64,000 nucleotides of DNA from Acetivibrio saccincola (GTDB lineage Bacteria; Bacillota; Clostridia; Acetivibrionales; Acetivibrionaceae), in NCBI RefSeq assembly GCF_002844395.1, contig NZ_CP025197.1, positions 2,852,001 to 2,916,000 of the forward strand. The letters are read 5' to 3'. The notes beneath the pieces are model-generated. The model saw nothing but the letters and a program-made list of their open reading frames with translations. It had not been told where the DNA came from and made no database searches. Each line of letters begins with the position of its first letter. Positions within the stretch are counted from its first letter, which is position 1. Shown piece after piece: positions 5,902 to 32,250 of this stretch. The position numbers were made by a program, and so were the translations under genes.

Positions 5902-6576
5902 TCATTCAAGTAATTTAAGCTTTTCCCTTAACTCAATTAGTTGTTTCTTATCCTCCTGAAATCTTTCGCTAATTTTTAAATCTAATTCATCTAATATATT
6001 ATTTAGAAATGCAAAAACAACTCCTTTAAATTCTTTTTTAGGTATAACCCCTACTCCTTTGGAATGAACAAATTCTATACTTTTATTCTCGTAAAAATTA
6101 TTGTTCCACGCTATTTCTATGTTTTCACCAACTCTTCTGAAGTAAACACTAGGGAGCCGTGAACCACCCCTATTAGGAAACCATGTATGCCTGAATATCC
6201 AAGTTCTTTTTGCATGATGCCATAAATAATTCTCATCTTCTTCATCAATATCAAAAGTATCGGCTTTTTGAATTAATTCTAAAGTATTTTCCCCTTTTAC
6301 CGGCAGAGGAAATGGATCATAACCTAATATATGATGCAAATTTTCACAAAACCACTCAATGACATAAAATAAATTCCATATGTACACATTAACGGTATCT
6401 CCTACTTTATATTGACATAAATTTTTACCGCTTACCCATAGGTCTAACCTCCCCCAGGATTGACCAATAACTCCTCTTTCATCATAAGGGTTTGGCATAA
6501 GGATATATTGAATTGCAAATTTATTAATATCTCCAATAACATATTTCATTTGTTTTTCTTCACTTTTTACTTCCAT
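5902..6576 (-). CDS. Hypothetical protein, unrecognised family
   Basis: A 224-aa soluble protein, preceded by gggggaaaaacc before ATG at 6576, so likely a real gene. There is no signal peptide or TM segment. The centre is rich in aromatic and basic residues: WHHAKRTWIFRHTWF at about 119-133, then GGSRLPSVYFRRVGENIEIAW at about 137-157. The last 40 residues are a charged, probably coiled helix (ISERFQEDKKQLIELREKL). I do not recognise the family. The block of a His/Arg-Trp patch followed by a beta strand pair (YFRRVG..IEIAW) looks conserved rather than random and could be a ligand or nucleic-acid pocket, but that is inference. It stands alone between the ABC exporter and an insertion sequence, with no operon partner. 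Confidence 0.7.
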   Translation of the reverse strand: MEVKSEEKQMKYVIGDINKFAIQYILMPNPYDERGVIGQSWGRLDLWVSGKNLCQYKVGDTVNVYIWNLFYVIEWFCENLHHILGYDPFPLPVKGENTLELIQKADTFDIDEEDENYLWHHAKRTWIFRHTWFPNRGGSRLPSVYFRRVGENIEIAWNNNFYENKSIEFVHSKGVGVIPKKEFKGVVFAFLNNILDELDLKISERFQEDKKQLIELREKLKLLE

Positions 6577-15684: not shown

Positions 15685-15996
15685 TCAGTTGTTGGAGTCC
15701 CCTTCAACGGGAAATCTGTCTATGATATTAAGTATGTATCTTGTTAATATAGTATAATCAACTGAATCTACAACTCCATCCCCATCTAAATCTGCTGCAT
15801 TAAAGTCAATGTAATTATTATTTCCAAAGTGTAAAATACAACGCCTAAGCAGTGCTGCATTCATTGTGTTTATCATACCGTCCTCGTTTAAATCCCCATA
15901 GTAGGGAGGACCCGGTGGGGCAAGGCTAAAAGTAATACCAGGAACATTAAAAACAAGAACCAGAGTAAATAATACTAATAATAATTTCTTGTACAT
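15685..15996 (-). CDS. Secreted protein consisting almost only of a type I dockerin
   Basis: 103 aa: a signal peptide (MYKKLLLVLFTLVLVFNVPGITF), a short Pro/Gly segment, and one type I dockerin filling residues 34-98. Both Ca-binding repeats are seen: GDLNEDGMINTMNAALLRRCIL, in which the last loop position is Asn rather than Asp, and DLDGDGVVDSVDYTILTRYIL. There is no catalytic or binding module, so nothing would be delivered to a scaffoldin except the dockerin itself. The N-terminal signal and dockerin resemble those of the two beta-helix genes upstream, so it may be the leftover 5' end of a third such gene or a functional plug for cohesin sites. The ordinary stop and a terminator argue against a very recent break. 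Confidence 0.85.
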   Translation of the reverse strand: MYKKLLLVLFTLVLVFNVPGITFSLAPPGPPYYGDLNEDGMINTMNAALLRRCILHFGNNNYIDFNAADLDGDGVVDSVDYTILTRYILNIIDRFPVEGDSNN

Positions 15997-16066
15997 ACAC
16001 GTCCCTCCTTATTTATTTTCCCCAAACAGTTGACAACACAAAAAACTTAAGAATAATTAACTAGTA

Positions 16067-16111
16067 ATAAACCAGGCATCTTAGCTATAAAAACCAAGAT
16101 GCCTGGTTTAT
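16067..16111 (-). terminator. Perfect 16-bp hairpin after the first beta-helix gene
   Basis: ATAAACCAGGCATCTT (16067-16082) pairs perfectly with AAGATGCCTGGTTTAT (16096-16111). It begins six bases after the stop at 16118 but lacks a T run on the minus strand, so it may stabilise the transcript 3' end or attenuate read-through into the small dockerin gene instead of acting as a strong terminator. Confidence 0.65.
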
Positions 16112-16117
16112 AAGTTT

Positions 16118-18490
16118 TTATCTGTAAAATGCTATTTTTACATCTGTTGTTTCAACGGTATTAGTGACCATTGATGTAATTTTGAATGAAAGAACGTTTT
16201 CTCCATCTATATTTAATTCATATTCCCCATCTAAAACAAGCTCCGGTGATGTGATTAATAACATGCTCTGATATTTTTTTGGAGCAGTAAAGCTTAAAAT
16301 TTCTTCTCCATTTGATGTAATGCTAATGACTGAGCCTTCCTCAGCTCCTCCTAACAGCACTGTGCACTGGGTGGACAACTCCGGATTTGGAGAACTGTTC
16401 ATTTCACCTGTTGCAATAAGTGTTCCACCTGTAATTGTAAAGGTATTTGGGTCGCACAATATTCCTGCTGCCAATTTCTCATCATCTGAATTATCCGCAC
16501 CTATTGCTGTTATGTTGCCGCCACTTATAGTAACCTCTGCAAGTTCTTTTGCGTATATAGCACTGGATTCTTCAGATAACAGTTTGATGTTTCCACCATT
16601 TATTTTGATGCTGTTTTTTCCGTCTATAGTTTCTGCAACGGATATAGCATCTATCTCACCGCCATTTATTACAACATAGCTGCCCTTTATACCGTCATTA
16701 CCGGAGGATATTTCAAAATTACCATTTTCAATTAAAACACATTCTCCTGCATCAAATGCATCTGAACCGGAATTAATACTAAAGTGCCCGCCTTCTATTG
16801 TTATATCCAGATCTGCTGTTATAGCGTCTTTGCCTGCATCAATTACAAATGTACCACCATTTATGGTTATTGAACCGTCAGAGTCTATACCGTCATCTTC
16901 ACCTGAGGTGGATTTTAAATTAAAGCTGCCTTTTTCAATAATAATATCACCTGAAACACTGAATACATCCCCAAATGAAGTTATATCTATTTCTCCGGCT
17001 TCCAATGTTAATGAACCTCCTATATCAAATCCTTCTTCCCCTGCTTCAATCTTTATCTTTCCACTTCTTCCTACTCCGATGCTTGCCTCATTTTTTACTA
17101 TTATTACATCCCCGTCTGCATTAAGTCCGTCACGCTTTGATACAATCTCTATATCCCCGTCTAATATTGATATATCTGATTCAGTTGTTAAACCATGTTT
17201 TCCTGCGTCAAACCTTAAAATACTTTCTTTTATTTCTATTCCTCCATCGGCATCAAAAATATCATTTTCAGTGGATGTTATATAAAACGCTCCTTTGTTA
17301 AGTATCATTTTTCCAGAAACGTCAAAAGCATCTCCTATAGATGTTATCTCCAATAAACTTATTCTGTCTTCACTGTCAAGAAGTGTTACATCTCCATCAA
17401 CATCAAAGCCTTCTTCATTTGCCTCAATAAATATTCTGCTATCTTTTATAAGTACACTTCCTCCTGTATTAAATCCATCCCGTCCGGTATTTAAAACTAA
17501 TTCTATAACATCATCTAATTCTATCTCACCTTTTGATGTTATGCCATGTTTTGCAGCTTTTATGTTTAAACGTCCTTTTTGTATGTAAATTCCTGCTTTA
17601 CTGTCAATTCCGTCTGAAGCAACGTCAATTTCTATGTCTGAATCTATTATTTCTATACCTTCTTTTGAATGGATTCCGTCCGAAGCTGCATGAATTTTTA
17701 TATCTGAACTTATTATTTCTATGCTTTCTTTTGAATGAATTCCGTCTGCTGCATTTGATACAATGTTTACTCTGGTTCCTTCAATACATAACTTAGAATA
17801 GCTTATAATACCCTGATCATAATTACCGGTTACACTTAAAATACCAGGCCCACATATTGACAATGGGGCATTACTTACTAATGCACCTTCAACTTTTTCT
17901 TCTTCAGTATCGTAAATGCTAACACTTCCATCAGTTAAACTATTGAATGCGGTCTTTGTTACAATATCTGCTTTATTTGCATTGGCAATGTATATTGCAG
18001 GTCCATTTGAATTGGTTATATTTGCATTAATTAATTCCAATTCCACATCTCCTGTAGTATCTACCTTTATCATTCCGTCTTCTAATGTTCCCTTTACTTT
18101 GTACCTTCCCCCTGCTGTAATGGTAACAATTGAATCCTCTACACTTATGCCTTTCCCGGAATATTCTATTGTATCTCCTAAAATAATTTCCCCGTCCATT
18201 GGCGGAATTGCTTCAACTGGAAATTTATCTATGATATGAAGTATGTATCTTGATAAGAAAACATAATCTATTGAATCTACAAAACCATCCCCGTCTAAAT
18301 CTGCAATATTTGTATCTTCATAAGGTTTTACATTTAAAACATGACGACTAAGTATTGATGCATCTATTGAGTTTATGTCACCGTCTTTATTTAAGTCCCC
18401 GTACAAAATGTCTCCCTGGCCGTAAACAACACCGGAAATGCTAAAAAGAAAAACAACCGTTAATAAAATCAGAAAAATCTTTTTGTACAT
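16118..18490 (-). CDS. Secreted N-terminal-dockerin protein with Cthe_2159-like beta-helix
   Basis: 790 aa. Signal peptide at about 1-25 (FLILLTVVFLFSISGVVYG). An N-terminal type I dockerin follows at about 29-95: GDLNKDGDINSIDASILSRHVL and DLDGDGFVDSIDYVFLSRYIL. The remainder is a long right-handed beta-helix of the carbohydrate-binding Cthe_2159 type: SIVTITAGGRYKVKGTLEDG starts it, then about 20 coils of the form (S/D)DGI(H/D)SK..I.I, rich in Asp, for example GIHSKEGIEIIDSDIEID. The founding protein of this family from C. thermocellum binds cellulose and polygalacturonate and has polysaccharide-lyase-like Ca sites; no catalysis is established. The dockerin should place it on a cellulosome. 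N-terminal dockerins are uncommon, which makes this pair notable. It is a paralogue of the next gene upstream. Confidence 0.88.
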   Translation of the reverse strand: MYKKIFLILLTVVFLFSISGVVYGQGDILYGDLNKDGDINSIDASILSRHVLNVKPYEDTNIADLDGDGFVDSIDYVFLSRYILHIIDKFPVEAIPPMDGEIILGDTIEYSGKGISVEDSIVTITAGGRYKVKGTLEDGMIKVDTTGDVELELINANITNSNGPAIYIANANKADIVTKTAFNSLTDGSVSIYDTEEEKVEGALVSNAPLSICGPGILSVTGNYDQGIISYSKLCIEGTRVNIVSNAADGIHSKESIEIISSDIKIHAASDGIHSKEGIEIIDSDIEIDVASDGIDSKAGIYIQKGRLNIKAAKHGITSKGEIELDDVIELVLNTGRDGFNTGGSVLIKDSRIFIEANEEGFDVDGDVTLLDSEDRISLLEITSIGDAFDVSGKMILNKGAFYITSTENDIFDADGGIEIKESILRFDAGKHGLTTESDISILDGDIEIVSKRDGLNADGDVIIVKNEASIGVGRSGKIKIEAGEEGFDIGGSLTLEAGEIDITSFGDVFSVSGDIIIEKGSFNLKSTSGEDDGIDSDGSITINGGTFVIDAGKDAITADLDITIEGGHFSINSGSDAFDAGECVLIENGNFEISSGNDGIKGSYVVINGGEIDAISVAETIDGKNSIKINGGNIKLLSEESSAIYAKELAEVTISGGNITAIGADNSDDEKLAAGILCDPNTFTITGGTLIATGEMNSSPNPELSTQCTVLLGGAEEGSVISITSNGEEILSFTAPKKYQSMLLITSPELVLDGEYELNIDGENVLSFKITSMVTNTVETTDVKIAFYR

Positions 18491-18780
18491 ACATCTCCCC
18501 TCCTGTTTATTTACTCACATGTTATTAAAAATAACAAAACAACTAAAAAATACTAAAAATTTACACCACCTTACATAATATTTTATAATAATGACTGTGT
18601 CACTATCTATTATTATATCATAGATTACATAAATATTTTGAATTTTTTACCTTCTTATTAAAATAAATACCTCTATATTATTATTTTACAACATAATTTC
18701 TTTTTAAGTATAGTTTTATCATTTTTTTGCCTCATACTGAATTGTATATAAAGTTTACATAATTTTTAAAAATATTTTTT
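18491..18780. other. Non-coding upstream region of the beta-helix gene
   Basis: A+T-rich, no gene. On the minus strand a possible promoter has GTGACA around 18600 and TATTAT 17 bases on, with an aggagggg ribosome site before ATG at 18490. The match is moderate only. Confidence 0.4.
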
Positions 18781-18814
18781 AAAAAACAGCCTCTTAGCTA
18801 AGAGACTGTTTTTT
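18781..18814 (-). terminator. Terminator after the second beta-helix gene
   Basis: AAAAAACAG-CTCTTAG pairs with CTAAGAG-CTGTTTTTT in a nearly perfect 34-base palindrome, giving a T run on either strand. Confidence 0.88.
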
Positions 18815-18850
18815 ATATATTATAATTTAAGGAGAAAAGAAATGCCTGAA

Positions 18851-21034
18851 TTACCAGCCGCCACCCCAGCCACCGCCTGGGAAGCCACCGCCCCAGTCGC
18901 CACCTGGGAAGCCACCTCCACCCCAGTCACCGCCTGGGAAACCGCCGCCCCAGTCACCGCCTGGGAAACCGCCACCGCCCCAATCACCGCCTGGGAAACC
19001 GCCGCCCCAGTCACCGCCTGGAAAGCCGCCACCCCAGCCGCCTCCTGGGAAGCCGCCAAATGGATTAAACTCAATACCACCATCAACTGTCACAATTGAA
19101 CTTGTGGTAAATGTTCTTTGAGGGTTTCCATTTACGTACATGGTATATGTAGTATTTAATCTAAGCTCCGGAGATGTAAATATTAATGTACTAAATGTTC
19201 TTGGAACTGTAAAATTAGCTACTTCAACATTGTTATTACTTCTAATGACAATGGTGGAATTTGCCGAAGCCCCGCCAAGCACTAATACCGGTTGTGTAGT
19301 TGCTTCCCTGGTTATCTGGCCTACATTTCCTCCCATACCGATAACGGTACCGCCTGTAATAGAAAATGTGGCACCATCAGTGTCTATACTTCCTTCCGGA
19401 CTACCGGATGCAACTATAAACATATATCCGCTATTTATATGTACTGTTCCGTTTGAATCAATTCCGTCCCCTCTTTGTATATTTATATAAATATTTCCGC
19501 CATTAATGGTTACATCTCTTTGAGCATTTATTCCGTCATTGCCGGCCTCTATTGTAATCTCCCCACCATTTACAATAACTGCTCCTTCACCACTTTCAAT
19601 TCCTTCATAACCATCTTTTATATTAAAAATACCATCGTGAATAACTAAATCTGAACTAGAGTGCAGACCGTCATCTTTTGCAAAAATGTTAAATTCCCCG
19701 CCAAATATTTCTAAATTTCTGTCAGCTTCTATACCGTCACTCTCAACACGGATGCTAAACAACCCATTTTCAATTGTAATATCGTAATCAGCTGCTATAC
19801 CGTCTTTACCGGATCTCAAATCGAAAACCCCGCCTGTTATCACTATTGATTCATTTGAATCTATTGCATCTTCGTTATATGAAAGGGCGTTAATTGTACC
19901 TCCGTTTATTGTTATGCTGCCTGTGATGTTAATACCGTCTTCAGGACATTCCAGAGTAATAGCACCATTGTCTACTCTTAAACTTCCGGTGGTATCAATT
20001 CCCTGCTCTCCCGCTTTAATGTTTATAGTCCCGCCCTTCATTATCATATTTGCTTCAGAATTAAATCCATCCTTTTGGGCATTTATTGTTATATAACCAT
20101 CAGTTAATGTTATATCTCCCTCTGCTGCTACTCCGTGTTTAACTGCAGAAATATTAAATGTTCCACCTTTGATATTAATATTACCTTTACAGTCTATACC
20201 ATCAGAATCTGCGGTAACATCTAATTTACCCCCTGCAATTTCCATGTAGTCCTTCGCATGTATTCCGTCTGTCACAGCAGACTGCACATTTATATTCCCA
20301 TCTTTTATATATAACTCAGAATAACTTATAATACCATGCTCATAATTAGCTCTCACATTTAAAGTCCCTTTACCGTCAATCACTAATACCGGATTACTGG
20401 AAATAACACCCTTAACCTTTGCATCACCGGTATCATATATACTGCTGCTTCCATCATTCAATGTATTTATAGTGCCATTTTCCAATATAATATTTGCTTT
20501 ATTTGCTTTTTCAACATAAATAGCAGGACCGTTTGAATTAGATATACTTACTCCTTTTAAACGAAGGGTAACTTCTCCGGAAGTATTCACATGGAGCATC
20601 CCATTTGTCAACGTCCCGGCAATTGTATACTCTCCGCCTGCTGAAATTCTAACAATTGACCCATTTACTGATATTCCTTCTCCTGAATATGTTATATTAG
20701 ATCCTAAATTAATCTCTCCTTTACCAAGACCTGGAGATGTTCCCGGATTAAAAACAGATCCCACAGGAAATCCGTCTATAATCTCAAGAAGATATCTTTT
20801 AAGTAACGCATAATCTAATGTGTCTACCATACCATCCCCGTTTAAGTCAGCTAAAGTTAGATTCTCAAGTTGTCTTTCTTCCATAATGTACCTGTTCATT
20901 AATGTCACATCAAAAGAATTGATCTCTCCGTCACCGTTTAAATCCCCATATAAGGCTGTACCGGCATAAACCAGGCTATAGGCACCTATAACCGTCACTA
21001 AAAACAAAATTAATGCACAATATTTTTTTTGCAT
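18851..21034 (-). CDS. N-terminal-dockerin, Cthe_2159-like beta-helix protein with Gly/Trp-rich tail
   Basis: 727 aa. Signal peptide at about 1-24. N-terminal type I dockerin at about 28-93: GDLNGDGEINSFDVTLMNRYIM and DLNGDGMVDTLDYALLKRYLL. Residues from about 110 to 655 are the same Asp-rich right-handed beta-helix as in the downstream paralogue, with coils such as DGIDCKGNINIKGGTFNIS and GGTINIKAGEQGIDTTGSL. The last 67 residues or so are an extreme low-complexity tail: about eight units of FPGG(D/G)WGGG ending in GGGW. The tail DNA is G+C-rich against an A+T-rich gene. The helix is expected to bind acidic or cellulosic polysaccharide at the cell surface through cohesin docking. The tail is unexplained: aromatic stacking on polysaccharide, self-assembly or a wall contact are all possible. 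A good promoter lies at 21143-21172. Confidence 0.88.
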   Translation of the reverse strand: MQKKYCALILFLVTVIGAYSLVYAGTALYGDLNGDGEINSFDVTLMNRYIMEERQLENLTLADLNGDGMVDTLDYALLKRYLLEIIDGFPVGSVFNPGTSPGLGKGEINLGSNITYSGEGISVNGSIVRISAGGEYTIAGTLTNGMLHVNTSGEVTLRLKGVSISNSNGPAIYVEKANKANIILENGTINTLNDGSSSIYDTGDAKVKGVISSNPVLVIDGKGTLNVRANYEHGIISYSELYIKDGNINVQSAVTDGIHAKDYMEIAGGKLDVTADSDGIDCKGNINIKGGTFNISAVKHGVAAEGDITLTDGYITINAQKDGFNSEANMIMKGGTINIKAGEQGIDTTGSLRVDNGAITLECPEDGINITGSITINGGTINALSYNEDAIDSNESIVITGGVFDLRSGKDGIAADYDITIENGLFSIRVESDGIEADRNLEIFGGEFNIFAKDDGLHSSSDLVIHDGIFNIKDGYEGIESGEGAVIVNGGEITIEAGNDGINAQRDVTINGGNIYINIQRGDGIDSNGTVHINSGYMFIVASGSPEGSIDTDGATFSITGGTVIGMGGNVGQITREATTQPVLVLGGASANSTIVIRSNNNVEVANFTVPRTFSTLIFTSPELRLNTTYTMYVNGNPQRTFTTSSIVTVDGGIEFNPFGGFPGGGWGGGFPGGDWGGGFPGGDWGGGGFPGGDWGGGFPGGDWGGGGFPGGDWGGGFPGGGWGGGW
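18854..19055 (-). repeat. G+C-rich tandem repeat encoding FPGGDWGGG units
   Basis: Tandem units of about 24-27 bp on the minus strand encode FPGG(D/G)WGGG(G) roughly eight times at the end of the beta-helix protein. All frames stay open across the array on both strands because it lacks A+T-rich stops, which produces long meaningless open frames. Confidence 0.92.
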
Positions 21035-21198: not shown

Positions 21199-21240
21199 TT
21201 AAAAAAACCCGCTGTTTTTTTAAACAGCGGGTTTTTTTTT
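21199..21240 (-). terminator. Terminator after the SLH xylanase gene
   Basis: AAACCCGCTGTTT and AAACAGCGGGTTT form a perfect stem with A and T runs on the two sides; works for the minus-strand gene ending at 21256. Confidence 0.9.
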
Positions 21241-21255
21241 ATTTTTATCTACCCT

Positions 21256-24200
21256 TTATAGTTCATTTAGTAGTTTGTATAAAATCACTGCAGCCTGTGC
21301 CCTGTTTGCATTTGCCAGTGGAGCAAATTCACCGGTTTCCATACCTCTTATAATTCCTGCTTGCTGCATTGTTTTTACAGCTTCTTTTGCATAGCCGGCA
21401 ATTTCTGAATCATCTTTAAAATCTACTGCTGCTTCTTTAAGCTCTAATGTAATTCCCACAGTTTTTAAAGTGTTAAAAGTCATTACTGCCATGTCTTGCC
21501 TGCTAATCTGGTCATTTACTCCAAAGGTTCCGTCCGGTCTTCCTTTTACAACGCCCAGCTCATATGCAGTTATTATAGCATTTTCGTACCAGGCACCTGC
21601 TTCAACATCACTAAATGGATTATCCTGTCCATCAGATTCTAAATTAAATGTATTAACTAACATTTGTGCAAATTCTGCCCTGGTTACATTTTTAAGTGGT
21701 GCAAATGAATCCTCAGACACACCCTTTATGATGCCGCGTGCTGCAAGAGCTATGATAGCGTCTTTAGCCCATGAAGTCTGGTCTAAATCATTTAGTGTTA
21801 CATCAACAGGATCTGCTGTAAATTTACCAAAGGATTCTGCTTTAAATTGAACTTTTCCGTTGCTGTAATATCCGTTTCTAATAACTTTAGAATTACCACT
21901 GTCATCAATGTAACTTACTACAACCTGACCTGGATTTATGTTTGCGTCTAATGTGTAATTAAAGGATATATTTACTTTTTGATTTTTATCAAATTGCTTA
22001 ATCTTTTTATCTCCAACTGATAAATAAAATTCATACACATTGTTGTCTGCTTTAGTTACACCTAGTAAAATAACAGCATCGTCTTCTGAATTTTCAAAGA
22101 AAGATACCGGTAATTCAACAGAAGTTGCATCTGTATTCACTTCAATTATTTTAACATTAGCTTCTAATGCTTCTTTCATCTGTTTAGCATTGAATTCTAC
22201 AACTAAACTTCCAACATCTTCTGTGTTTTTAACATCAACTTTTCCTTTTCCGTCTTTTGCATTGCTTATTATCTTTTCAAATATTTCATCAGTTACAGCA
22301 GCAGAAGCCTTTCCTTCATCATCAATAACCAACTCAACTACTGCGTCAGTTTCATCTTCAGTTTTGTCTTCGTCAGCTTTGTCAGAACTTCCTGAAGATT
22401 TACTTCCTCCTGTACTGCCTCCAGGGGTCTTGCCGCCTTCTGATGAATCAATTTTATCAACAAGAATCAGGTTACCGAAAACTGATGGATCCATATATCC
22501 TGTACCTGTTATATCGTTCCATGCCACAACACTCTGACGGGAACCATTCTTTGCATCATTAATCTGGAGGTCAAAGCCTATAACTGTATCTTTGGAAGGA
22601 GTTATTTCTGTAAACGGTATTTTAACTTCAACTATATAATTTGTACCTGAAACACTTGTTGCTGATTCAAATCCTTCCTCTATGCTTTGAGGGTTGAAGG
22701 AAGTTTCATTATCAAAGTTAACCCTGTACTGTCCATGGTTTCTTCCCTGATAGGATGTAGTCTTGGAATTTGTCTGGTCAACGAAAACCTCAATGGAGTC
22801 CTGCTCCCATGGATCTCTATTGCGCTTGTCAAGTGCATCATCTTGTACTTCAATTAAAACATAGAGGTTTTCTTCATCCCAAAGTGCTCTTCCAAAACCG
22901 GTAGCACCTTGCCATGCTGTCTGATACTGGTCTATATTTATCTTAGGTGCTTTTTTCCATATGTCATCTATCTCACCGTCAATAACAGGTGTTCCATATA
23001 CTGCTTTCGCTTCTTTAGGTTCTCTTTCCTCACGTGGGTTTTCTTCAATAAATTTTTCAGGATCCATAATTGCATAATAAGCTGGTTTAGCCTGCAACTC
23101 AGCATCAAACAACACCGGACTTCCCTCAGTTCTCCAGCTGGAAGCATCATCCAATCCCCAAATAGTCACTCTTGCAATATGGTCAGAGTATTCTTTATAA
23201 AGTTTAAATAATTCTGCATATAAGTAAGCCTGGTCAATAGCTTCCTTTTCTGTAAGTACAAAGTCGGAACCAGCAGTAATATCAAGCTCAGTAATGCTTA
23301 TCTCAACACCTAACTCTGAAAATTTCTCTAAAGATAAGCGTACATTTTCTACATTTGTATTTACATTATAGTGAGACTGCATTCCAATACCGTCAATTAA
23401 CAGTCTGCCGTCATTTTCCGCTGCGTACCTGTCGTTAATGTCTTTTACCATGCTGTACATTACAGATGCTTTCTGCTGGTTATCATCATTGTAGTCATTA
23501 TAGTATAATTTCACATCTGTCCAACCGTTTTCGTCCAGTACTTCCCTTGCAATTCTAAAGGCTATCTCTACATAATCCGGTCCAATTGCTTTGTACCAGG
23601 AAGATTCACGAAGTGCCCACTGCCAATTGTCAGGGGTTGCTGTATCAGTTAAACCGTCTTTAATTGCTTCGTTTACAACATCCCAGCCAATTACCTTGTC
23701 CCCGAAGTTTTCTATAACTGTTGTGATGTGAGTTCTCAAGTTTTCAAGGGCTTCTTCACGGCTTAGCGGATTGCCGTCTTCATCTGTACTTAGCCACAGA
23801 GGCATTTGCTGATGCCATACCAATACGTGGCCAAACATTTCAAATCCTTCTTCTTTAACTTTATCCACAAGTTGGTTTTGTGCACTGAAATCAAATTCTC
23901 TCCGGGAATTATATACACAATCCGGTTTCATAGCATTTTCCGCTGTAAGAACATTAAAATGATGTTTTAGAAGCTCAAGTCTTTGACCTTCTAAATCCAC
24001 TGCTGATACTATATTACCAACTAAAAAGTAATCTTTATAAGCCTCCTTTATTGGTGTCAAATCAGTCTGAATCGGCTTTCTTGCACCAACAGGACCAATA
24101 TAAGAAATTTCAAAATCATCCATATAGAATTTTACTTCGCCGTCAGGCTCATCAACTGTTTCCACATATGCATATAAAACAGCCGGATTAACTGACAGTG

Positions 24201-26061
24201 TGAAATCACCTGACAACTGTACCCACTCTTCATCTGTTACGGTTACATCCTTAGAGACATTGGTAAATGTATCACTTCCGCTTTGTACGCTAATACGCAG
24301 TACAGTTGGCACTTCACCTTCTGCCATTTTAACCCATGCAGATAAGTGGTATTTATGTCCCTTATGCATTTTGCCCATAACGTCTAAAATCGGCCCGTTA
24401 TATCTACTTGATACAGTTGCACTTAAGCTTTGGGAACCATCTTTAGTGTAGTTATCTTCAGTTGTAAGTTCTATGCTCCCGTAAGAAGCATCTCTTATTA
24501 CCCAATTGCCGATACCGTCTTCAAAGTCAGCTTTAATACCGGTCTGGTCTTTACCTATGCTCACATTATCTAAGTAAAAACCAATTTCCGGATGATTTGA
24601 CTCAATATATAGTGTGAGTTCATCCATATCTTCTGTAAAAGTATAAGTACCGCTTACCTGAACCCACTGTGTATCTGTTATTTCAACAGCAGCTATGTTT
24701 TTCCAATTCTTTGATTCAGCACCTGAAGCCAATTCTTCCATAGTAATGGAAAGAATTAATGCCTCTTCAAAATCTTCAGGAATTTCTATAACCTTCACAT
24801 AGGCACAGATATTGTATTCTGTGTCTTTTTTAAGTGAGTTAACCAGGTTGATGCTTGGTCCTTCCCAATTTTGAGTTCTTCCGGTGGTTTTTAAGCTGTA
24901 TTGTCCGGCATATACTTCTTCATCAACTACCTCTAAGCTTACACCGCCTCTTTGCCTCCAGCCCTGAGTTGTTCCGGTTTCAAAATCATAAAAGAATTCT
25001 TCCTCTTCTTCTCCGGATTCAGATGTTGAGAGGCATATAATTGACACATCGTCTATGTAGATATCAGGAATAACATCTCCTTCATCTGTTCCTTCCCCTG
25101 GTTCTATCCAGATTAAAAATTCTGTAGTAGCCATTGGTACTTCGTAGTCTTTTAACTCAAATACCGTCCAGTCTTCAGAAGTAACTTCCCTGTTTCCTAT
25201 AAGCCACGGATAATTTTCTTCTCCTCCTGAAGCCACCTTGCTGGCTATGTGGTATTCACCCGTTCCTTCTGATATTCTTAATTTTAATGATATATTGTAC
25301 TTTTTGCCTGACTCCATCAGGGTTGTTAAATTTAAGAACGGCTGGCTATCCTTTGAATTTCTGTTCTTAAACACTAATGACTTGTTGTCTCCCCAGTCAT
25401 ATATGTCAACTTCCCCACCGTCTCCCCATGACTTTGCTACCCAGTTGCCAGGGTTTCCGTCTTCAAAGTCCTGGAATAATACTTCTGTAACTTCTTGAAC
25501 TTCTACAATTTCCACATCATCAATATAAATGTCCGGGATAACATCCCCCACGTCTGTTCCTTCCCCTGGCTCTATCCAGATTAAAAACTCTGTAGTATTC
25601 ATTGGTACTTCATAGTTTTTAAACTCAAAAACCGTCCAGTCTTCAGAAGTAACTTCCCTGTTTCCTACTATCCAGATATAATTCTCTTCCTCTTCTGAAG
25701 CCACTTTAGCAGTAATGTGGTATTCACCTGTTCCTTCTTCCAGTCTCAATTTCATCGACATGTTGTATTTCTTGCCTGATTTCATAAGATTTGTTATGTT
25801 TAAGAATGGCTGGCTCTCACTTGAGCTTCTGTCTGAAAGTACTAAAGATTTATTGTCACCCCAGTCATAAATACCAATTTCCCCGCCGTCTCCCCACGGC
25901 TTCGCTGTCCAGTTTCCTGTGTCTCCATCTTCAAAGTCTTGGAATAAAATCTTTTCCCCTAAAGGTAAAAACTCTTCCCCGTATACAGTTAGAACGTTTG
26001 CCGGCAGTAACCAACTAATTAAAAGTACCATCATTACTAAAAAGCTACTCTTTCTTTTCAT
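21256..26061 (-). CDS. S-layer-anchored multidomain GH10 endo-1,4-beta-xylanase
   Basis: 1601 aa. Signal peptide 1-29. Four N-terminal CBM22/CBM4_9-type modules: 38-187 and 194-343 are near-copies of each other, 355-503 and 508-656 are more diverged. GH10 domain about 668-1005 with acid/base Glu798 (WDVVNEA) and nucleophile Glu925 (ITELDIT). One CBM9 at about 1018-1203, where two are often found. A Gly/Ser then Asp/Glu linker (1205-1240) leads to an uncharacterised module of about 180 residues, then three SLH motifs (about 1420-1601; GAWYENAIITAYELGVVKGR, GVNDQISRQDM). The architecture resembles C. thermocellum XynX and Thermoanaerobacterium XynA: it hydrolyses xylan while held to the cell surface, not through the cellulosome. 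A promoter at 26412-26440 predicts a leader of about 340 bases. Confidence 0.95.
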   Translation of the reverse strand: MKRKSSFLVMMVLLISWLLPANVLTVYGEEFLPLGEKILFQDFEDGDTGNWTAKPWGDGGEIGIYDWGDNKSLVLSDRSSSESQPFLNITNLMKSGKKYNMSMKLRLEEGTGEYHITAKVASEEEENYIWIVGNREVTSEDWTVFEFKNYEVPMNTTEFLIWIEPGEGTDVGDVIPDIYIDDVEIVEVQEVTEVLFQDFEDGNPGNWVAKSWGDGGEVDIYDWGDNKSLVFKNRNSKDSQPFLNLTTLMESGKKYNISLKLRISEGTGEYHIASKVASGGEENYPWLIGNREVTSEDWTVFELKDYEVPMATTEFLIWIEPGEGTDEGDVIPDIYIDDVSIICLSTSESGEEEEEFFYDFETGTTQGWRQRGGVSLEVVDEEVYAGQYSLKTTGRTQNWEGPSINLVNSLKKDTEYNICAYVKVIEIPEDFEEALILSITMEELASGAESKNWKNIAAVEITDTQWVQVSGTYTFTEDMDELTLYIESNHPEIGFYLDNVSIGKDQTGIKADFEDGIGNWVIRDASYGSIELTTEDNYTKDGSQSLSATVSSRYNGPILDVMGKMHKGHKYHLSAWVKMAEGEVPTVLRISVQSGSDTFTNVSKDVTVTDEEWVQLSGDFTLSVNPAVLYAYVETVDEPDGEVKFYMDDFEISYIGPVGARKPIQTDLTPIKEAYKDYFLVGNIVSAVDLEGQRLELLKHHFNVLTAENAMKPDCVYNSRREFDFSAQNQLVDKVKEEGFEMFGHVLVWHQQMPLWLSTDEDGNPLSREEALENLRTHITTVIENFGDKVIGWDVVNEAIKDGLTDTATPDNWQWALRESSWYKAIGPDYVEIAFRIAREVLDENGWTDVKLYYNDYNDDNQQKASVMYSMVKDINDRYAAENDGRLLIDGIGMQSHYNVNTNVENVRLSLEKFSELGVEISITELDITAGSDFVLTEKEAIDQAYLYAELFKLYKEYSDHIARVTIWGLDDASSWRTEGSPVLFDAELQAKPAYYAIMDPEKFIEENPREEREPKEAKAVYGTPVIDGEIDDIWKKAPKINIDQYQTAWQGATGFGRALWDEENLYVLIEVQDDALDKRNRDPWEQDSIEVFVDQTNSKTTSYQGRNHGQYRVNFDNETSFNPQSIEEGFESATSVSGTNYIVEVKIPFTEITPSKDTVIGFDLQINDAKNGSRQSVVAWNDITGTGYMDPSVFGNLILVDKIDSSEGGKTPGGSTGGSKSSGSSDKADEDKTEDETDAVVELVIDDEGKASAAVTDEIFEKIISNAKDGKGKVDVKNTEDVGSLVVEFNAKQMKEALEANVKIIEVNTDATSVELPVSFFENSEDDAVILLGVTKADNNVYEFYLSVGDKKIKQFDKNQKVNISFNYTLDANINPGQVVVSYIDDSGNSKVIRNGYYSNGKVQFKAESFGKFTADPVDVTLNDLDQTSWAKDAIIALAARGIIKGVSEDSFAPLKNVTRAEFAQMLVNTFNLESDGQDNPFSDVEAGAWYENAIITAYELGVVKGRPDGTFGVNDQISRQDMAVMTFNTLKTVGITLELKEAAVDFKDDSEIAGYAKEAVKTMQQAGIIRGMETGEFAPLANANRAQAAVILYKLLNEL

Positions 26062-26832: not shown

Positions 26833-28890
26833 ATGAAACAAAAGGCAACAGTACTTTTGGCAATCATAATGTGTATGACAATTTTAGTTATGCCAAATGT
26901 ACAAGCACGTACTGTAACATCAAATGAAATAGGCACACACGGGGGATATGACTTTGAATTTTGGGTAGATTCCGGTTCAGGGTCTATGACTTTAAAAGAC
27001 GGCGGGGCTTTTAGCTGTCAGTGGAGTAATATAAACAATATATTATTCCGTAAAGGCCGCAAATTTGACCAAACCAAGACACATCAACAACTTGGTAATA
27101 TTGTGGTGGAATACGCAGCTGACTACCGTCCAAATGGAAACTCATACCTATGTATCTACGGTTGGACAGTTGATCCCCTGGTAGAGTACTATATCATTGA
27201 AAGCTGGGGCAACTGGCGTCCTCCGGGAGCACAGTCAAAGGGTATGATTACAGTGGACGGCGGTACATACGACATTTATGAGACTACAAGGGTTAACCAG
27301 CCTTCCATTATAGGTACTGCAACTTTCCAACAGTATTGGAGTGTTAGAACATCTAAAAAAACAAGCGGTACTGTATCTGTAAGCCAGCACTTCAGAGCTT
27401 GGGAAAGCATGGGCATGAAAATGGGTAAAATGTATGAAGTTGCTACTACAGTAGAGGGATACCAGAGCAGCGGTTCTGCAGACGTTTATAAAAACGTAAT
27501 TACCATTGGTGGAAGTATACCTAACGACCCAATAGACCCAGTGGAACCAGGAGGACCAGGTGGTTCTACAATGCCGGAGAATAACGGTCCTAACTCAAGA
27601 GACGCTTTCTCAATAATTGAAGCAGAAGAATACAACGCTTACAGTTCTTCAAGCATGGAAATTATAGGAACTGGCAATGGGGAAGGTATAGGCTATATAG
27701 AAAGCGGAAACACACTTACATTTAAAAACATAAACTTTGGCAGCGGTGCAAGCAAATTTACTGCATATGTTGCATCTGATGTGGAAAATCCTACAACAAT
27801 TGATATAAGAATAGGAAGTTCAACAGGAACACGCATAGGTTCTTTACAAGTGGGTTCTACAGGTGGTTGGAATGACTATACAGAGCTTTCTACAAACATA
27901 ACTTCTGTTACAGGGGTAAATGATGTTGTATTGGTATTTTCAGGTCCTGTAAATATTGACTGGTTTACATTTACAAAAGGAGGCGGAAGTGATCCGGTAC
28001 CTACCCAGCAGCCTGGAATTAAATTTGGTGATTTAAACGGAGACGGAATAATTAACTCTATGGACGCATCAATTCTTAACAGATACATACTGGAAGTTTC
28101 AACTTCTATACCAAATATTAATGCTGCTGACTTAAACGGGGACGGAATAATTAACTCTATGGACGTTACACTGCTAGGTAGATATATATTAGAAGTTATT
28201 GATAGATTTCCTGCAGAGGATATAATGCCATCACCATCACCATCACCTTTACCAAAACCAACTGTAAATCCTAACAGTAAACTTGTAGCATTAACATTTG
28301 ATGACGGACCGGACAATCAACTAACAGCACGTGTATTAGACAAACTTGACTATTATAATGTGCCGGCAACTTTCTTTATGATAGGTCAGAAAATCAACGG
28401 TTCAACTGCTGCAATTGTTAAAAGAGTAGTTGATTCAGGACACGAAATAGGAAACCACTCATGGGGTTATGAAAGCTTAAATAATAAATCAGTAAATGAA
28501 ATAAGGAAGTCTGTAGAGGATACAAATGCAGTAATCATGCAGTATGCAGGGGTAAAACCTAACTTCTTCCGTCCACCAAACCTTGCAACAAGCCCTACAA
28601 TGTTCCAAGCTATTGATTTAGTATTTGCAGGCGGTATTACGGCAAATGACTGGGATCAATCAACAACTGCCCAACAAAGAGCAAGCATGATACTAAACAG
28701 CGTAAGGGACGGTTCAATAATTCTTCTACATGACGTTCAGCCTTTACCACATCCTACACCTGAAGCTCTTGACATAATTATTCCTGAGTTAAAACGTCAG
28801 GGCTACGAATTTGTAACATTAACTGATTTGTTCAGGTTAAAAGGAGTACCTATTACACCTACTAACAGAATGTATAATTCAGTACCTTAA
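26833..28890 (+). CDS. xynA: Cellulosomal bifunctional xylanase/acetylxylan esterase (GH11-CBM6-Doc-CE4)
   Basis: 685 aa with the module order of C. thermocellum XynA. Signal peptide 1-25. GH11 jelly-roll at about 28-227: nucleophile Glu118 ([12 protein letters not shown]) and acid/base Glu208 ([10 protein letters not shown]). CBM6 at about 258-382, binding xylan or cellulose. Type I dockerin at about 396-462 with near-identical repeats ([12 protein letters not shown] twice), so it is a cellulosome subunit. [10 protein letters not shown] linker leads to a CE4 NodB-type deacetylase at about 482-675: TFDDGP (Asp490, Asp491) and HEIGNH (His537, His542) are the metal and catalytic motifs, RPP the third. 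One protein thus cuts the xylan backbone and removes its acetyl groups. RBS aggaggg. It faces away from the SLH xylanase, suggesting shared control. Confidence 0.95.
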
Positions 28891-29130: not shown

Positions 29131-29958
29131 TTAATTTTGCTCCGGTCTGGTTTTATAAATAATTGCTGTGCCAATTATAAGTACAAATACGGATAATACC
29201 AGATACAGCGTACCGTTTAGTGAAAATTGAGGGAATTTAGAAGCCATTACTGCATAAGAATTCACCCCGACATGCAGGGCAACAGGTGCCCAAATTGAAC
29301 CTGTCCAAAGGTATATATATGCCAAAAACAAGCCTAATAAAAAAGCATAAGTTCCTTGAACAGGGTCAAGATGTAAAAATCCAAACAAAAAGGCTTGTAT
29401 GCCTATGGCTTTCGTTATACTGACATTCTTTCTTAGTTCATTGAAAATAAACCCTCTAAAAATAACCTCCTCTAAAAAAGGATACAGTATTCCTGTACTT
29501 AATAACAATAAAATTACATTATTAGAAGAAAGTATACTTTCAATTAGGGTGTTGTATTTTATAAAAGTATGTTCTAAATCAACATTATGCCTAATATAAT
29601 TTAATAAAAAATCCACAACTATATTTGCAGCCACTCCGGTAAAAACCAAAACAAAAATCTTATAAAAAGGTATTTTTAAAAAACCACCTTCTTTATATAT
29701 GTTTTTCTTTTTTAGTCTAAATATTGTAAAATACCCTATAGTAGAAAGAATGAAAGAAACAATATAAATAGCAGGTGTATACTGGGAAATAAATTTTTCC
29801 ACTTGTGTTTGAATATAAATAATGTCTGCAAAGCCTATTTCCTTTGCATTTAAAATAAAAAACACAAACATTGCAATATACGAAGCAAAAAACTGACTTA
29901 TTATAAATACCAGTAAATATAATAATATATTGCCAACCATTTCAAACTTTTTACTCAT
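29131..29958 (-). CDS. CPBP-family intramembrane glutamic protease (Abi/CAAX type)
   Basis: 275 aa with about eight hydrophobic segments. The family motifs are clear: EEVIFRGFIFNELRK at about 165-179 (the catalytic Glu pair and Arg), FGFLHLDPVQG at about 192-202 (first His) and PVALHVGVNSYAV at about 225-237 (second His and Asn). Members cleave prenylated proteins in eukaryotes; in bacteria they are linked to bacteriocin self-immunity, sigma-factor release and other membrane proteolysis. The start ATG overlaps the PHP gene's end by 8 bases (ATGAGTAA), so the two are one operon. Substrate unknown. Confidence 0.9.
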   Translation of the reverse strand: MSKKFEMVGNILLYLLVFIISQFFASYIAMFVFFILNAKEIGFADIIYIQTQVEKFISQYTPAIYIVSFILSTIGYFTIFRLKKKNIYKEGGFLKIPFYKIFVLVFTGVAANIVVDFLLNYIRHNVDLEHTFIKYNTLIESILSSNNVILLLLSTGILYPFLEEVIFRGFIFNELRKNVSITKAIGIQAFLFGFLHLDPVQGTYAFLLGLFLAYIYLWTGSIWAPVALHVGVNSYAVMASKFPQFSLNGTLYLVLSVFVLIIGTAIIYKTRPEQN

Positions 29959-30829
29959 ATGACTTAACCCTTCCTTTTTTTTCTGCCAACTTTTTCATTT
30001 CTTCCAGCACTTTATACGGGACATATAAATCACCTCTGCCCGTCCCTATACTTATATGAGGTTTTAAATACCCATGAAAATCACTCCCACCAGTTGGTAC
30101 TAAATCATATTCTACAGCTAATTTCAAAAAAAGTATTGTTTCATGGGGCATGTTATCGGAATAAAACACTTCAATACCTTCTAAGCCGTATCCTTTTAAC
30201 TCTTTCAGCAATGCATTAAGCTCCTCAATTGTACGGACACCTAAATAAATAGGATGGGCTAAAACAGGTATCCCGCCACATTTTTTAATTTCTTCTATAG
30301 CTTCTTTTGGCAGTAGCTTTTCCCTTTTCACATATGCAGGTCTCCCAACAGAAATATACTTTTCAAATGCCTCACTTATATTTTTGACATATCCTTTCTT
30401 AACTAAAACACTTGCTATATGAGGTCTTCCCACAAGCTTGTCCTTAGCTTCCGCTTTTACCTCTTCTAAAGTTATATCAATACCTAATTCATTGAGTTTT
30501 TTAATAATTTTGGGGTTTCTCTCGTCCCTGCTGGCTTTAAGCCTCTCTAACAGGGAAGTTATGTTTTTATGATTTCCATCAAAAAAATACCCCAGCAAAT
30601 GCATTTCACTGTGAGGAGCAAAATCAGCACTTATTTCCACACCTGCTATAACTTCAATCCCTGCACTCTTACCTTCCTTCATAGCCTCATCAACACCATC
30701 TATTGTATCATGATCTGTTAAGGCAATTGCCGAAAGACCTGACTTTTTCGCATGCCTGACAAGCTCTGAAGGCGTCATAGTTCCGTCAGAAACAGTAGAG
30801 TGGGTATGTAAATCAATAAATTTATCCAT
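29951..30829 (-). CDS. PHP-domain phosphoesterase (TrpH/YciV type)
   Basis: 292 aa. The PHP metal-binding motifs are complete: DLHTHSTVSDG at about 6-16, ALTDHDTIDG at about 36-45, GVEISADF near 63, HLLGYFF near 78, GGIPVLAHP near 190 and GGSDFHG near 246. The length and the insertion are those of the YciV/RNase AM group, which hydrolyse 3',5'-nucleoside bisphosphates and take 5' nucleotides from RNA. Exact activity here is inferred from the family. RBS aagggag before ATG at 30829. It is translationally coupled to the CPBP protease downstream. Confidence 0.9.
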   Translation of the reverse strand: MDKFIDLHTHSTVSDGTMTPSELVRHAKKSGLSAIALTDHDTIDGVDEAMKEGKSAGIEVIAGVEISADFAPHSEMHLLGYFFDGNHKNITSLLERLKASRDERNPKIIKKLNELGIDITLEEVKAEAKDKLVGRPHIASVLVKKGYVKNISEAFEKYISVGRPAYVKREKLLPKEAIEEIKKCGGIPVLAHPIYLGVRTIEELNALLKELKGYGLEGIEVFYSDNMPHETILFLKLAVEYDLVPTGGSDFHGYLKPHISIGTGRGDLYVPYKVLEEMKKLAEKKGRVKSYE

Positions 30830-30972
30830 AATGCTTTTCTCCCTTAATTTTTATGCTTCATTTTTATTTTTTCATAATATTTTCATAAATATAATATAAA
30901 TGATATCCTTACTATTATACATGAAATACAGGCTTTTTTAAATAAAAATATAAAATATTATTTCCCACATCC

Positions 30973-31001
30973 TTCCACACTAATGCTTATGGTGTTATAA
31001 T
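30973..31001 (+). promoter_or_regulatory. Possible promoter of the Cys-rich small protein
   Basis: TATAAT at 30996-31001 with a weak -35 (TTCCAC, 30973-30978) 17 bases upstream. It would start transcription just before the structured leader. Confidence 0.45.
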
Positions 31002-31020
31002 ATACTTGTCATCAAATAAA

Positions 31021-31080
31021 GCCTATGGTGAAATAATGGTAGATATTATGTCTTTTGCATCTAAAGACAACACCTAGGGG
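31021..31080 (+). promoter_or_regulatory. Structured leader RNA, type unknown
   Basis: An outer stem, CCTAtGGTG (31022-31030) with CACCTAGG (31071-31078), encloses a perfect inner hairpin GTCTTT-tgcatct-AAAGAC (31050-31068). The ribosome site taggaggag follows 15-20 bases later, so folding could affect translation. It matches no riboswitch I recognise. Confidence 0.4.
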
Positions 31081-31105
31081 GTACTATAGTTAGGAGGAGA
31101 ATGCT

Positions 31106-31426
31106 TTGGACTCAAAAAGATGCTGCAGTAACTGCTTAAAAGGAACTTTTATCAACATAAACGGTGATATTCTATGCATTGAAAAAGGAGTTGTTTCCCC
31201 TGATTACGTTTGTTCAAAACACAGATATCTGCCTTCTCTTAAGTCTTTAAAAAGAAAAATTAACACCTGCAAAGACTGTGAACATTTTATTATGTTAGAT
31301 ACCAACAAAAATATTGAAGACAGGTGTATGGGCATATGTCAGTTGTTTACAGTCAGAAAGTATAACGGAAGAAAGAAAAAGACCTGTTCTAAATTTGTAA
31401 AACGTACAAGTAAGGAAGTTTCTTGA
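31106..31426 (+). CDS. Small Cys-rich, probably zinc-binding protein
   Basis: 106 aa with eleven Cys, arranged in pairs: CCSNC at about 6-10, single Cys near 26 and 37, CKDC near 56-59, then CMGIC near 74-78 and Cys near 94. This suggests two zinc-ribbon-like sites. It is strongly basic (many Lys/Arg, tail RKKKTCSKFVKRTSK), compatible with RNA or DNA binding. The start is TTG at 31106, with taggagga nine bases upstream; the nearby ATG at 31101 is out of frame and would give only 12 codons. Similar small Cys-rich proteins occur in clostridial genomes without an assigned function. It stands alone with its own leader. Confidence 0.65.
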   Translation: MDSKRCCSNCLKGTFININGDILCIEKGVVSPDYVCSKHRYLPSLKSLKRKINTCKDCEHFIMLDTNKNIEDRCMGICQLFTVRKYNGRKKKTCSKFVKRTSKEVS

Positions 31427-31560
31427 ATTTATTTTTTTCTATTAATTATATTCTTATATTACCGATAAATATTACCGGTAGAGATTTTGACATAAGTTAA
31501 ATGAGCGCCTGTAATTATATGCTGTGAAAAAGAGTGATATGTTTAAAAAGGGTGATATAT

Positions 31561-32250
31561 TTGAAAGTAAGTGATATATTTTACCAAAAACTAAATGAAA
31601 TTCAAAGCAGGGTACCAATAAAAATAGCCGGCACACATACACGTGAAAATACCTTTCAGGACGTCCTAAATTCTGCTTTAAATAAGAATATTAATGATAG
31701 TGATACTTACATCAGTATAGATACATTAAACCCAAATAACACTATTTTAGGCGCTGTAGATAAAGAGGGCAATGACAGGACCCATGATGTCAAGCGTGCA
31801 AGAGCAGCCCTTGCAAATAGCAGGGCTTATATTCCAACTGACAGAAATGAACTTATGGAAATGATTAATAGAAATATAGAAATTGCTTCACAAAAATTCG
31901 GGGTGGATCCTAATCTTATAAGAGCAGTTATGAAACAGGAATCAAACTTTAACCCCACTGTAATTTCACGTTCAGGTGCCCAGGGGCTGATGCAGTTAAT
32001 GCCTGGCACGGCAGATTGGTTAGGGGTAACGGATCCTTTCGATATTGCCCAAAATATAGAAGGAGGAGTAAAATATCTTAGGGATCAGCTAAATAATTTT
32101 GAAGGGGATATAAAACTTGCCCTTGCTGCGTATAACGCAGGTCCAGGCAATGTTATAAAATACAATGGTATTCCTCCTTTTAGTGAAACACAAAACTATG
32201 TAGTAAAGGTTTTAGAGTATTACACAATGTATTCTAACTTAGGGCAGTAA
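31561..32250 (+). CDS. Lytic transglycosylase, SLT domain
   Basis: About 229 aa. The N-terminal 95 residues are low in recognisable features; the SLT/goose-lysozyme-like domain occupies about 100-225: [15 protein letters not shown] (catalytic Glu in KQES), then [19 protein letters not shown] and [13 protein letters not shown]. It cleaves the MurNAc-GlcNAc bond to leave anhydro-muramic ends. No signal peptide is visible, as in several short Firmicute SLT proteins that use other export routes or act in spores. The frame is open from 31534; TTG at 31561 with aaaaggg seven to eight bases upstream is the best start. Three copies of a gtgatatnttt motif surround the start (31534, 31552, 31571). Confidence 0.87.

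What the first reader, a model, noticed from the sequence alone, without database searches (positions are those of the whole stretch)
15685..21034. A dockerin/beta-helix gene cluster: candidate unexplored cellulosome component set
Three adjacent minus-strand genes each open with a signal peptide and an N-terminal type I dockerin. Two carry about 550-650 residues of Asp-rich right-handed beta-helix of the Cthe_2159 type, known in C. thermocellum to bind cellulose and polygalacturonate; one is almost only the dockerin. Dockerins usually sit at the C-terminus and on enzymes. A tandem array of dockerin-borne beta-helix proteins beside both an SLH xylanase and a dockerin xylanase suggests a dedicated set for binding or presenting acidic polysaccharide on the cellulosome. 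The dockerin key positions differ between genes (SI/SI, SF/TL, TM/SV versus SM/SM in XynA), so they may not all choose the same cohesin.
Basis: partly seen in the sequence, partly recalled or inferred. Interest (0 to 1): 0.72.

Follow-up and report, generated by a model that had tools for sequence, protein, structure and literature searches.

The report
Cellulosome-docked beta-helix rod protein cluster
A cellulose-digesting bacterium carries side-by-side genes for long rod-shaped proteins that probably plug into its enzyme complex and help hold plant material; related uncharacterised parts occur in other cellulose digesters, so the cluster is real but of a known kind.

Summary
The genome is 3,604,547 bp, the published length of Herbivorax (Acetivibrio) saccincola GGR1. 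Genes g3 (18851-21034) and g2 (16118-18490) encode an N-terminal type I dockerin and a long PF14262 (Cthe_2159-type) beta-helix; g1 (15685-15996) is a dockerin alone. Predicted models match the Cthe_2159 crystal structure best.

The pair recurs in three relatives, beside the SLH xylanase in one and about 4 kb from it in another. But N-terminal dockerins are not rare here (13 clear cases of 63 placed dockerins), and the varied recognition residues say little: 63 dockerins show 50 combinations. Hairpins after each gene suggest separate transcripts.

A tree of 47 PF14262 proteins separates a dockerin clade (g2, g3, Cthe_0729) from a dockerin-less clade with Cthe_2159. The binding data I saw in print concern the other clade, so ligand transfer is inference. 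Best reading: non-enzymatic, calcium-dependent carbohydrate-binding rods whose length changes by gain of 22-residue coils. Dockerin-borne relatives are already in print as uncharacterised proteins (Cthe_0729).

The parts
18851..21034 (-). g3: signal-peptide-like start, N-terminal type I dockerin, PF14262 beta-helix, C-terminal Ig/FN3-like cap, Gly/Trp-rich tail (727 aa)
20786..20950 (-). dockerin of g3
   Evidence: G000:C1:2872786-2872950
19331..20722 (-). beta-helix of g3 (aa about 105-568 in the model; PF14262 core aa 125-321)
18856..19058 (-). tandem repeat of about 27 bp coding the Gly/Trp/Phe-Pro-rich tail of g3
16118..18490 (-). g2: signal-peptide-like start, N-terminal type I dockerin, longer PF14262 beta-helix, no Gly/Trp tail (790 aa)
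18239..18403 (-). dockerin of g2
   Evidence: G000:C1:2870239-2870403
16499..18193 (-). beta-helix of g2 (aa about 100-664 in the model)
17606..17746 (-). 66-bp tandem repeat (2.1 copies, 82% match) inside g2: 66 bp is three 22-residue coils, a likely recent coil duplication
15685..15996 (-). g1: signal-peptide-like start plus type I dockerin and nothing else (103 aa)
15730..15900 (-). dockerin of g1, with Asn at loop position 12 of repeat 1
21201..21238 (-). terminator-like hairpin between the SLH xylanase and g3 (listed on + by the scanner; symmetric)
21256..26061 (-). neighbour: SLH-borne GH10 xylanase with CBM4_9 and CBM9 modules
26833..28890 (+). neighbour: GH11-CBM6-dockerin-polysaccharide deacetylase protein

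Best explanation
g2 and g3 are non-enzymatic cellulosome subunits. After secretion the N-terminal type I dockerin binds type I cohesins of the scaffoldin, as the enzymes' dockerins do. The rest is a stiff, calcium-dependent right-handed beta-helix rod capped by an Ig/FN3-like domain, which binds polysaccharide of the plant cell wall along its side, keeping the complex on its substrate. The rod's length changes by gain or loss of 22-residue coils; the g3 type also carries a flexible Gly/Trp tail that may add aromatic contacts. g1 is a separately kept, dockerin-only paralogue that can occupy a cohesin without bringing a module. Shown here: domain composition, fold match, conservation, clade, coil variation. 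Inferred: secretion, cohesin binding, calcium, ligand, the tail's and g1's roles.
For: Dockerin and PF14262 above curated cut-offs. AlphaFold model of g3 (mean pLDDT 84.8, most of the helix above 90) and of g2 (86.2); best match Cthe_2159 with calcium bound (4peu), Z 35.6, rmsd 1.5, 237 residues for g3 and Z 31.9, rmsd 1.6, 237 for g2, next chains Z 20.0 and 22.0; sequence profile hit to 4peu E = 1.5e-31. Period 22; coil insertions between homologues; 66-bp repeat in g2. Dockerin-borne PF14262 in 18 of 60 related genomes (27 of 47 proteins), each of the 18 with cohesins. 31 cohesin matches in the own genome. Cthe_2159 domains are described as binding cellulose and polygalacturonate (PMC6712302, passages).
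Against: No binding, cohesin or expression data for these proteins. The described ligand binding comes from the other clade. Near-invariant charged residues in the core (Lys179 in 38 of 39 sequences, Asp194 in 37, Asp278 in 38, Asp256 in 35) leave a hidden catalytic role open. g2 and g3 are net acidic, which does not favour an acidic ligand unless calcium bridges. The dockerin part of the models has low confidence.
Confidence: 0.55

Rival explanations
1. g2 and g3 are polysaccharide lyases or other enzymes of the PL9-like beta-helix type, acting on pectin or another acidic polymer.
For: Fold is called polysaccharide-lyase-like (title of 4peu); Pel9A (1ru4) is among the matches of g2 at Z 16.4, rmsd 4.7, 263 residues; one near-invariant Lys and three Asp columns in 39 cores.
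Against: Pel9A scores no better than many unrelated beta-helices in the same list (tailspikes, adhesins, an alginate epimerase, an antifreeze protein), while Cthe_2159 stands far above. I recall, without having seen it here, that no lyase activity was found for Cthe_2159.
Confidence: 0.15
2. The rods are spacers or a cell-surface or cell-to-cell matrix material rather than substrate binders; length matters, ligand does not.
For: Length varies by whole coils between homologues while caps stay: 448 to 1064 aa among dockerin forms. Matches to adhesins and a calcium-dependent ice-binding helix at middling Z.
Against: The side of the helix core keeps charged residues, and a Cthe_2159 domain is described as binding polysaccharide.
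Confidence: 0.2
3. The PF14262 helices work with CotH kinases, for example as their substrate or partner, and the tandem pair is an offshoot of that system.
For: PF14262 and CotH are fused in one dockerin protein in the 5 Herbivorax genomes (Pfam scan of one, positions for the other four); Cthe_2159 lies next to a CotH gene, and CotH matches lie within 1 kb of the PF14262 match in G007 and G013. Both domains are listed among those special to anaerobic gut fungi (PMC6712302, passages).
Against: No CotH gene in the cluster of the window; in the relative G005 the Cthe_2159-type gene has no CotH match on its 11.8-kb contig; many PF14262 genes of family f4 are far from CotH.
Confidence: 0.1
4. g1 is a decaying fragment of a third beta-helix gene, not a working gene.
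For: Absent next to the pair in the three relatives examined; calcium-loop Asp replaced by Asn, 1 of 63; start resembles g2.
Against: Intact frame with ribosome-binding-like site and hairpin; codon-position differences to g2 are 36/19/43 (98 codons), much like g2 against its homologue, 34/19/38 (100 codons), so the protein has been under constraint for most of its history. Small dockerin proteins of unknown kind exist in C. thermocellum (Cthe_0109, 12 kDa; Cthe_0438, 15 kDa; PMC6083626, passages).
Confidence: 0.35

Closest known systems
Cthe_0729 / Clo1313_1494 of Clostridium thermocellum
   Same: N-terminal dockerin, PF14262 helix, Gly-rich tail ending in Trp; same clade as g2 and g3. Identified by its published promoter string lying just upstream.
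   Different: 548 aa and about 7 coil motifs against about 12 and 15; single gene, not a tandem pair. Listed in print as 'CBM ... no expression' (PMC6083626) and 'HP-Doc' with a predicted sigma-I promoter (PMC4711584); uncharacterised in the passages seen.
Cthe_2159 (founder of PF14262; 4peu, 4phb)
   Same: Same fold over 237 residues; same Pfam family.
   Different: 286 aa, lipobox-like start, no dockerin; beside a CotH gene; in the dockerin-less clade, 100/99 support.
Dockerin-PF14262-CotH fusion of the same genome (G000:C1:2686878-2690063)
   Same: N-terminal dockerin plus PF14262 helix plus Gly/Trp-rich tail.
   Different: Adds Fn3_assoc and CotH domains; has a sigma-I-like promoter in 5 of 5 Herbivorax genomes, against 1 of 8 tandem-pair genes.

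Membership tests
PF14262 (Cthe_2159) | Profile match above the curated cut-off of 25.8 bits | tested here: met
   238.3 bits (g2), 286.9 bits (g3); g1 has no PF14262 hit
PF14262 (Cthe_2159) | Right-handed beta-helix like 4peu | tested here: met
   Predicted models: Z 35.6 and 31.9, rmsd 1.5 and 1.6 over 237 residues
PF14262 (Cthe_2159) | Calcium and polysaccharide binding | not testable with these tools
   4peu is titled 'native form with Calcium bound'; nothing measured on g2 or g3
Type I dockerin | Two calcium loops and profile match above 22.9 bits | tested here: met
   51.6, 49.6 and 62.2 bits for g1, g2, g3; g1 has one loop with Asn at position 12
Type I dockerin | Recognition residues like the enzymes' dockerins of the same genome | tested here: met
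   S/T at position 10 and Arg at 18 in both repeats of all three
Cellulosome subunit | Binds a cohesin and is found in purified cellulosomes | not testable with these tools
   31 cohesin matches in the genome; no binding or proteomic data
Polysaccharide lyase (PL9-like) | Catalytic Lys and calcium site in the PL9 arrangement | tested here: inconclusive
   Near-invariant Lys179 and Asp columns, but no superposition on the PL9 active site was possible; Pel9A only one of many middling matches
Co-regulated operon or sigma-I regulon | Common promoter or transcript | tested here: inconclusive
   Hairpins between genes; sigma-I-like pattern in 1 of 8 pair genes within 300 bp; no transcript data

The most novel reading that the evidence does not exclude
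The dockerin clade of PF14262 is a distinct class of cellulosome subunit: calcium-stiffened, substrate-gripping rods with an aromatic Gly/Trp end, whose reach is tuned by gain and loss of 22-residue coils, with g1 as a dockerin plug that sets how many cohesins they fill. The cellulosome would then hold dedicated non-enzymatic grip or spacer parts beside CBMs.
Probability: 0.25. Interest if true: 0.65.

Novelty: new member of a known kind. Interest (0 to 1): 0.38.

Why it matters
About half of the PF14262 genes seen in these relatives (27 of 47 proteins, 18 of 60 genomes) are tied to the cellulosome, yet the passages I saw in print list the dockerin form only as a hypothetical protein, a 'CBM', or a cellulosome protein without a named module. 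If they grip substrate without cutting it, they would be simple parts for designer cellulosomes, and the coil-number variation gives a natural series to test whether reach or number of binding sites matters.

Tried and rejected
Cohesin choice from residues 10/11: rejected, 50 combinations among 63 dockerins. Operon: not favoured; folding finds a strong hairpin after g1, g2 and g3. Against this, the terminator scanner listed 6 sites (3.0 expected) and of these intergenic hairpins only the one between the xylanase and g3; it did not list those after g1, g2 or g3. The sigma-70-type promoter scan gave 29 sites against 26.2 expected, so the good-looking site before g3 (21172-21143) proves nothing.

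Sigma-I promoter: my first pattern had the wrong spacing; repeated with the published spacing; one of the eight pair genes was there tested from a wrong start and was retested. Result: 1 of 8 pair genes, 5 of 5 CotH fusions within 300 bp; the pattern occurs 28 times in 128 kb of strand of the window.

Terminal Trp: 14 of 25 proteins with a strong dockerin against 2 of 20 others, Fisher p = 0.0017; the rows are related, the test was thought of after seeing the data, and with the two later proteins it is 15 of 27. The 2 exceptions fall in the dockerin clade.

A link of the dockerin-less form to polyphosphate genes, which I had in mind from recall, was not seen in the one neighbourhood scanned. 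Polysaccharide lyases are absent from the 50 rows shown for g3, which excludes nothing. Papers: no open paper holds 'stand-alone dockerin' with cellulosome and dockerin. The original Cthe_2159 structure paper is not held under the DOI that I gave from memory.

Three of 66 dockerin matches could not be placed in an ORF and are left out of the 63. Of 16 with the dockerin starting by residue 70, three were dropped as fragments or lacking a hydrophobic start. Sequences more than 90% alike were dropped before the residue count (45 to 39).
Full report
Where it is. The window is bases 2852001-2916000 of a single-contig genome of 3,604,547 bp. That is exactly the length given for Herbivorax saccincola GGR1, CP025197 (PMC5805879, whole text read); the paper reports 60 putative cellulosomal genes and a primary scaffoldin with 11 type I cohesins. 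In this genome I find 66 dockerin matches and 31 cohesin matches.

What is there. g3 and g2 each have a signal-peptide-like start (by eye), an N-terminal dockerin and a PF14262 helix; g1 is start plus dockerin only. The AlphaFold models are confident in the helix, and the best structural match by far is Cthe_2159. The helix repeats every 22 residues. About 12 coil motifs are found in g3 and 15 in g2, against 7 in Cthe_0729 and 3 in Cthe_2159 (loose motif, counted by eye from its list). Alignment of the homologues shows insertions of whole coils between conserved ends, and g2 holds a 66-bp tandem repeat, the length of three coils.

Conservation. In G004 (contig of the same length as JAAYTS010000157.1, a MAG named Clostridium sp.) the order SLH xylanase, g3, g2, smpB, amidase, GH16 is the same and g1 is missing. 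In G002 (contig of the same length as Herbivorax sp. ANBcel31 NZ_JAVDDS010000035.1) the pair lies about 4 kb from the SLH xylanase. In G003 the pair lies beside homologues of the window genes at 29131-32250. No short dockerin-only ORF of 70 aa or more was found beside the pair in these three. Tandem PF14262 genes also occur in G017 (two) and G040 (three).

Are the dockerins unusual? Of 63 placed dockerins, 13 are N-terminal behind a hydrophobic start. Of the ten outside the cluster, four have an enzyme domain by Pfam (GH9, GH30, pectate lyase, SASA), one is the PF14262-CotH fusion, one a CAP protein and one has only the dockerin; three were not scanned. Positions 10/11 take 50 combinations in 63 dockerins, so SI/SI, SF/TL, TM/SV and SM/SM are within the ordinary spread. 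g1 alone has Asn at loop position 12.

Family history. All 47 PF14262 genes over the cut-off found in 60 related genomes (25 genomes) were put on a tree of their cores. One branch with 100/99 support parts 15 dockerin-less proteins, 13 of them with a lipobox-like start, from 32 others: 27 with a strong dockerin, 3 with a weak one, 2 with none. Cthe_2159 is in the first group; g2, g3, the CotH fusion and Cthe_0729 are in the second. The tandem-pair proteins of four Herbivorax genomes form one group (8 rows, 99/95); g2 sits on a long branch. The dockerin form is found in 18 of 60 genomes: 12 of 14 in the own family and 6 of 11 in another (f4). All 18 have cohesins; 42 of 60 genomes do.

What is known. 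The Cthe_2159 domain is described as binding cellulose and polygalacturonic acid (PMC6712302, passages); the original paper is not held. The C. thermocellum gene Cthe_0729 is a dockerin-PF14262 protein: its published promoter string (PMC4711584, Table 2, part 1 of section 12 read) lies at L111:5880-5919, just before the ORF at 5922, whose domains are as stated. In the passages seen it is 'CBM ... no expression' (PMC6083626), a cellulosome dockerin protein with little change between cellobiose and poplar (PMC3990059), and induced by ethanol (PMC3848806). So the kind is known and uncharacterised as far as these searches show.

Regulation. A sigma-I-like site (AAA, 13-14 bases, CGWA) lies 76-100 bases before the CotH fusion in 5 of 5 Herbivorax genomes but before only 1 of 8 tandem-pair genes. 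Hairpins after g1, g2 and g3, and between the xylanase and g3, speak for single-gene transcripts.

Mechanism. Docking on the scaffoldin by the N-terminal dockerin, and carbohydrate binding by a calcium-dependent rod, is the reading that best joins these facts; only the anatomy is shown. Results that do not fit neatly: near-invariant Lys and Asp residues that could be catalytic, the acidic charge of g2, and the fact that the described ligand binding is from the other clade. g1 has the codon-position pattern of a gene kept under constraint, which speaks for a working dockerin-only protein, but its absence in three relatives and its odd loop residue leave decay open.

Verdict. A real and conserved cluster of uncharacterised cellulosome subunits, a new member of a known kind. 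The extra points of interest are the separate cellulosomal clade, length change by coil gain, the Gly/Trp tail, and the repeated link between PF14262 and CotH.

Noticed in passing
G000:C1:2686878-2690063 (L100:5879-9064) and L094, L096, L098, L099: A dockerin-PF14262-Fn3_assoc-CotH fusion (Pfam scan of the G000 protein; both matches in one frame in the other four) occurs in all five Herbivorax genomes held in the search, with a conserved sigma-I-like promoter.
   Followed up: partly
L112:7579-10884: The Cthe_2159 gene lies 51 bases downstream of a gene with LTD, Fn3_assoc and CotH domains; similar neighbours in G007 and G013 by position.
   Followed up: partly
window 18856-19058 and the C-termini listed: Many dockerin-borne PF14262 proteins end in a Gly-rich stretch and a final Trp (15 of 27); function unknown.
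   Followed up: partly
G000:C1:561326-563638 (L127, L056): A scaffoldin with several cohesins has an in-frame TAA inside the cohesin at 562775-563155; either a real split gene or a sequencing error.
   Followed up: no
G000:C1:3434265-3436289 (L016): A dockerin lies at residues 117-175, between a short N-terminal stretch and a long C-terminal part that by eye looks like a rhamnogalacturonan lyase; possible gene fusion.
   Followed up: no
window 25045-25947: The SLH xylanase gene holds a 468-bp tandem duplication (1.9 copies, 80% match) over its N-terminal CBM4_9 modules.
   Followed up: no
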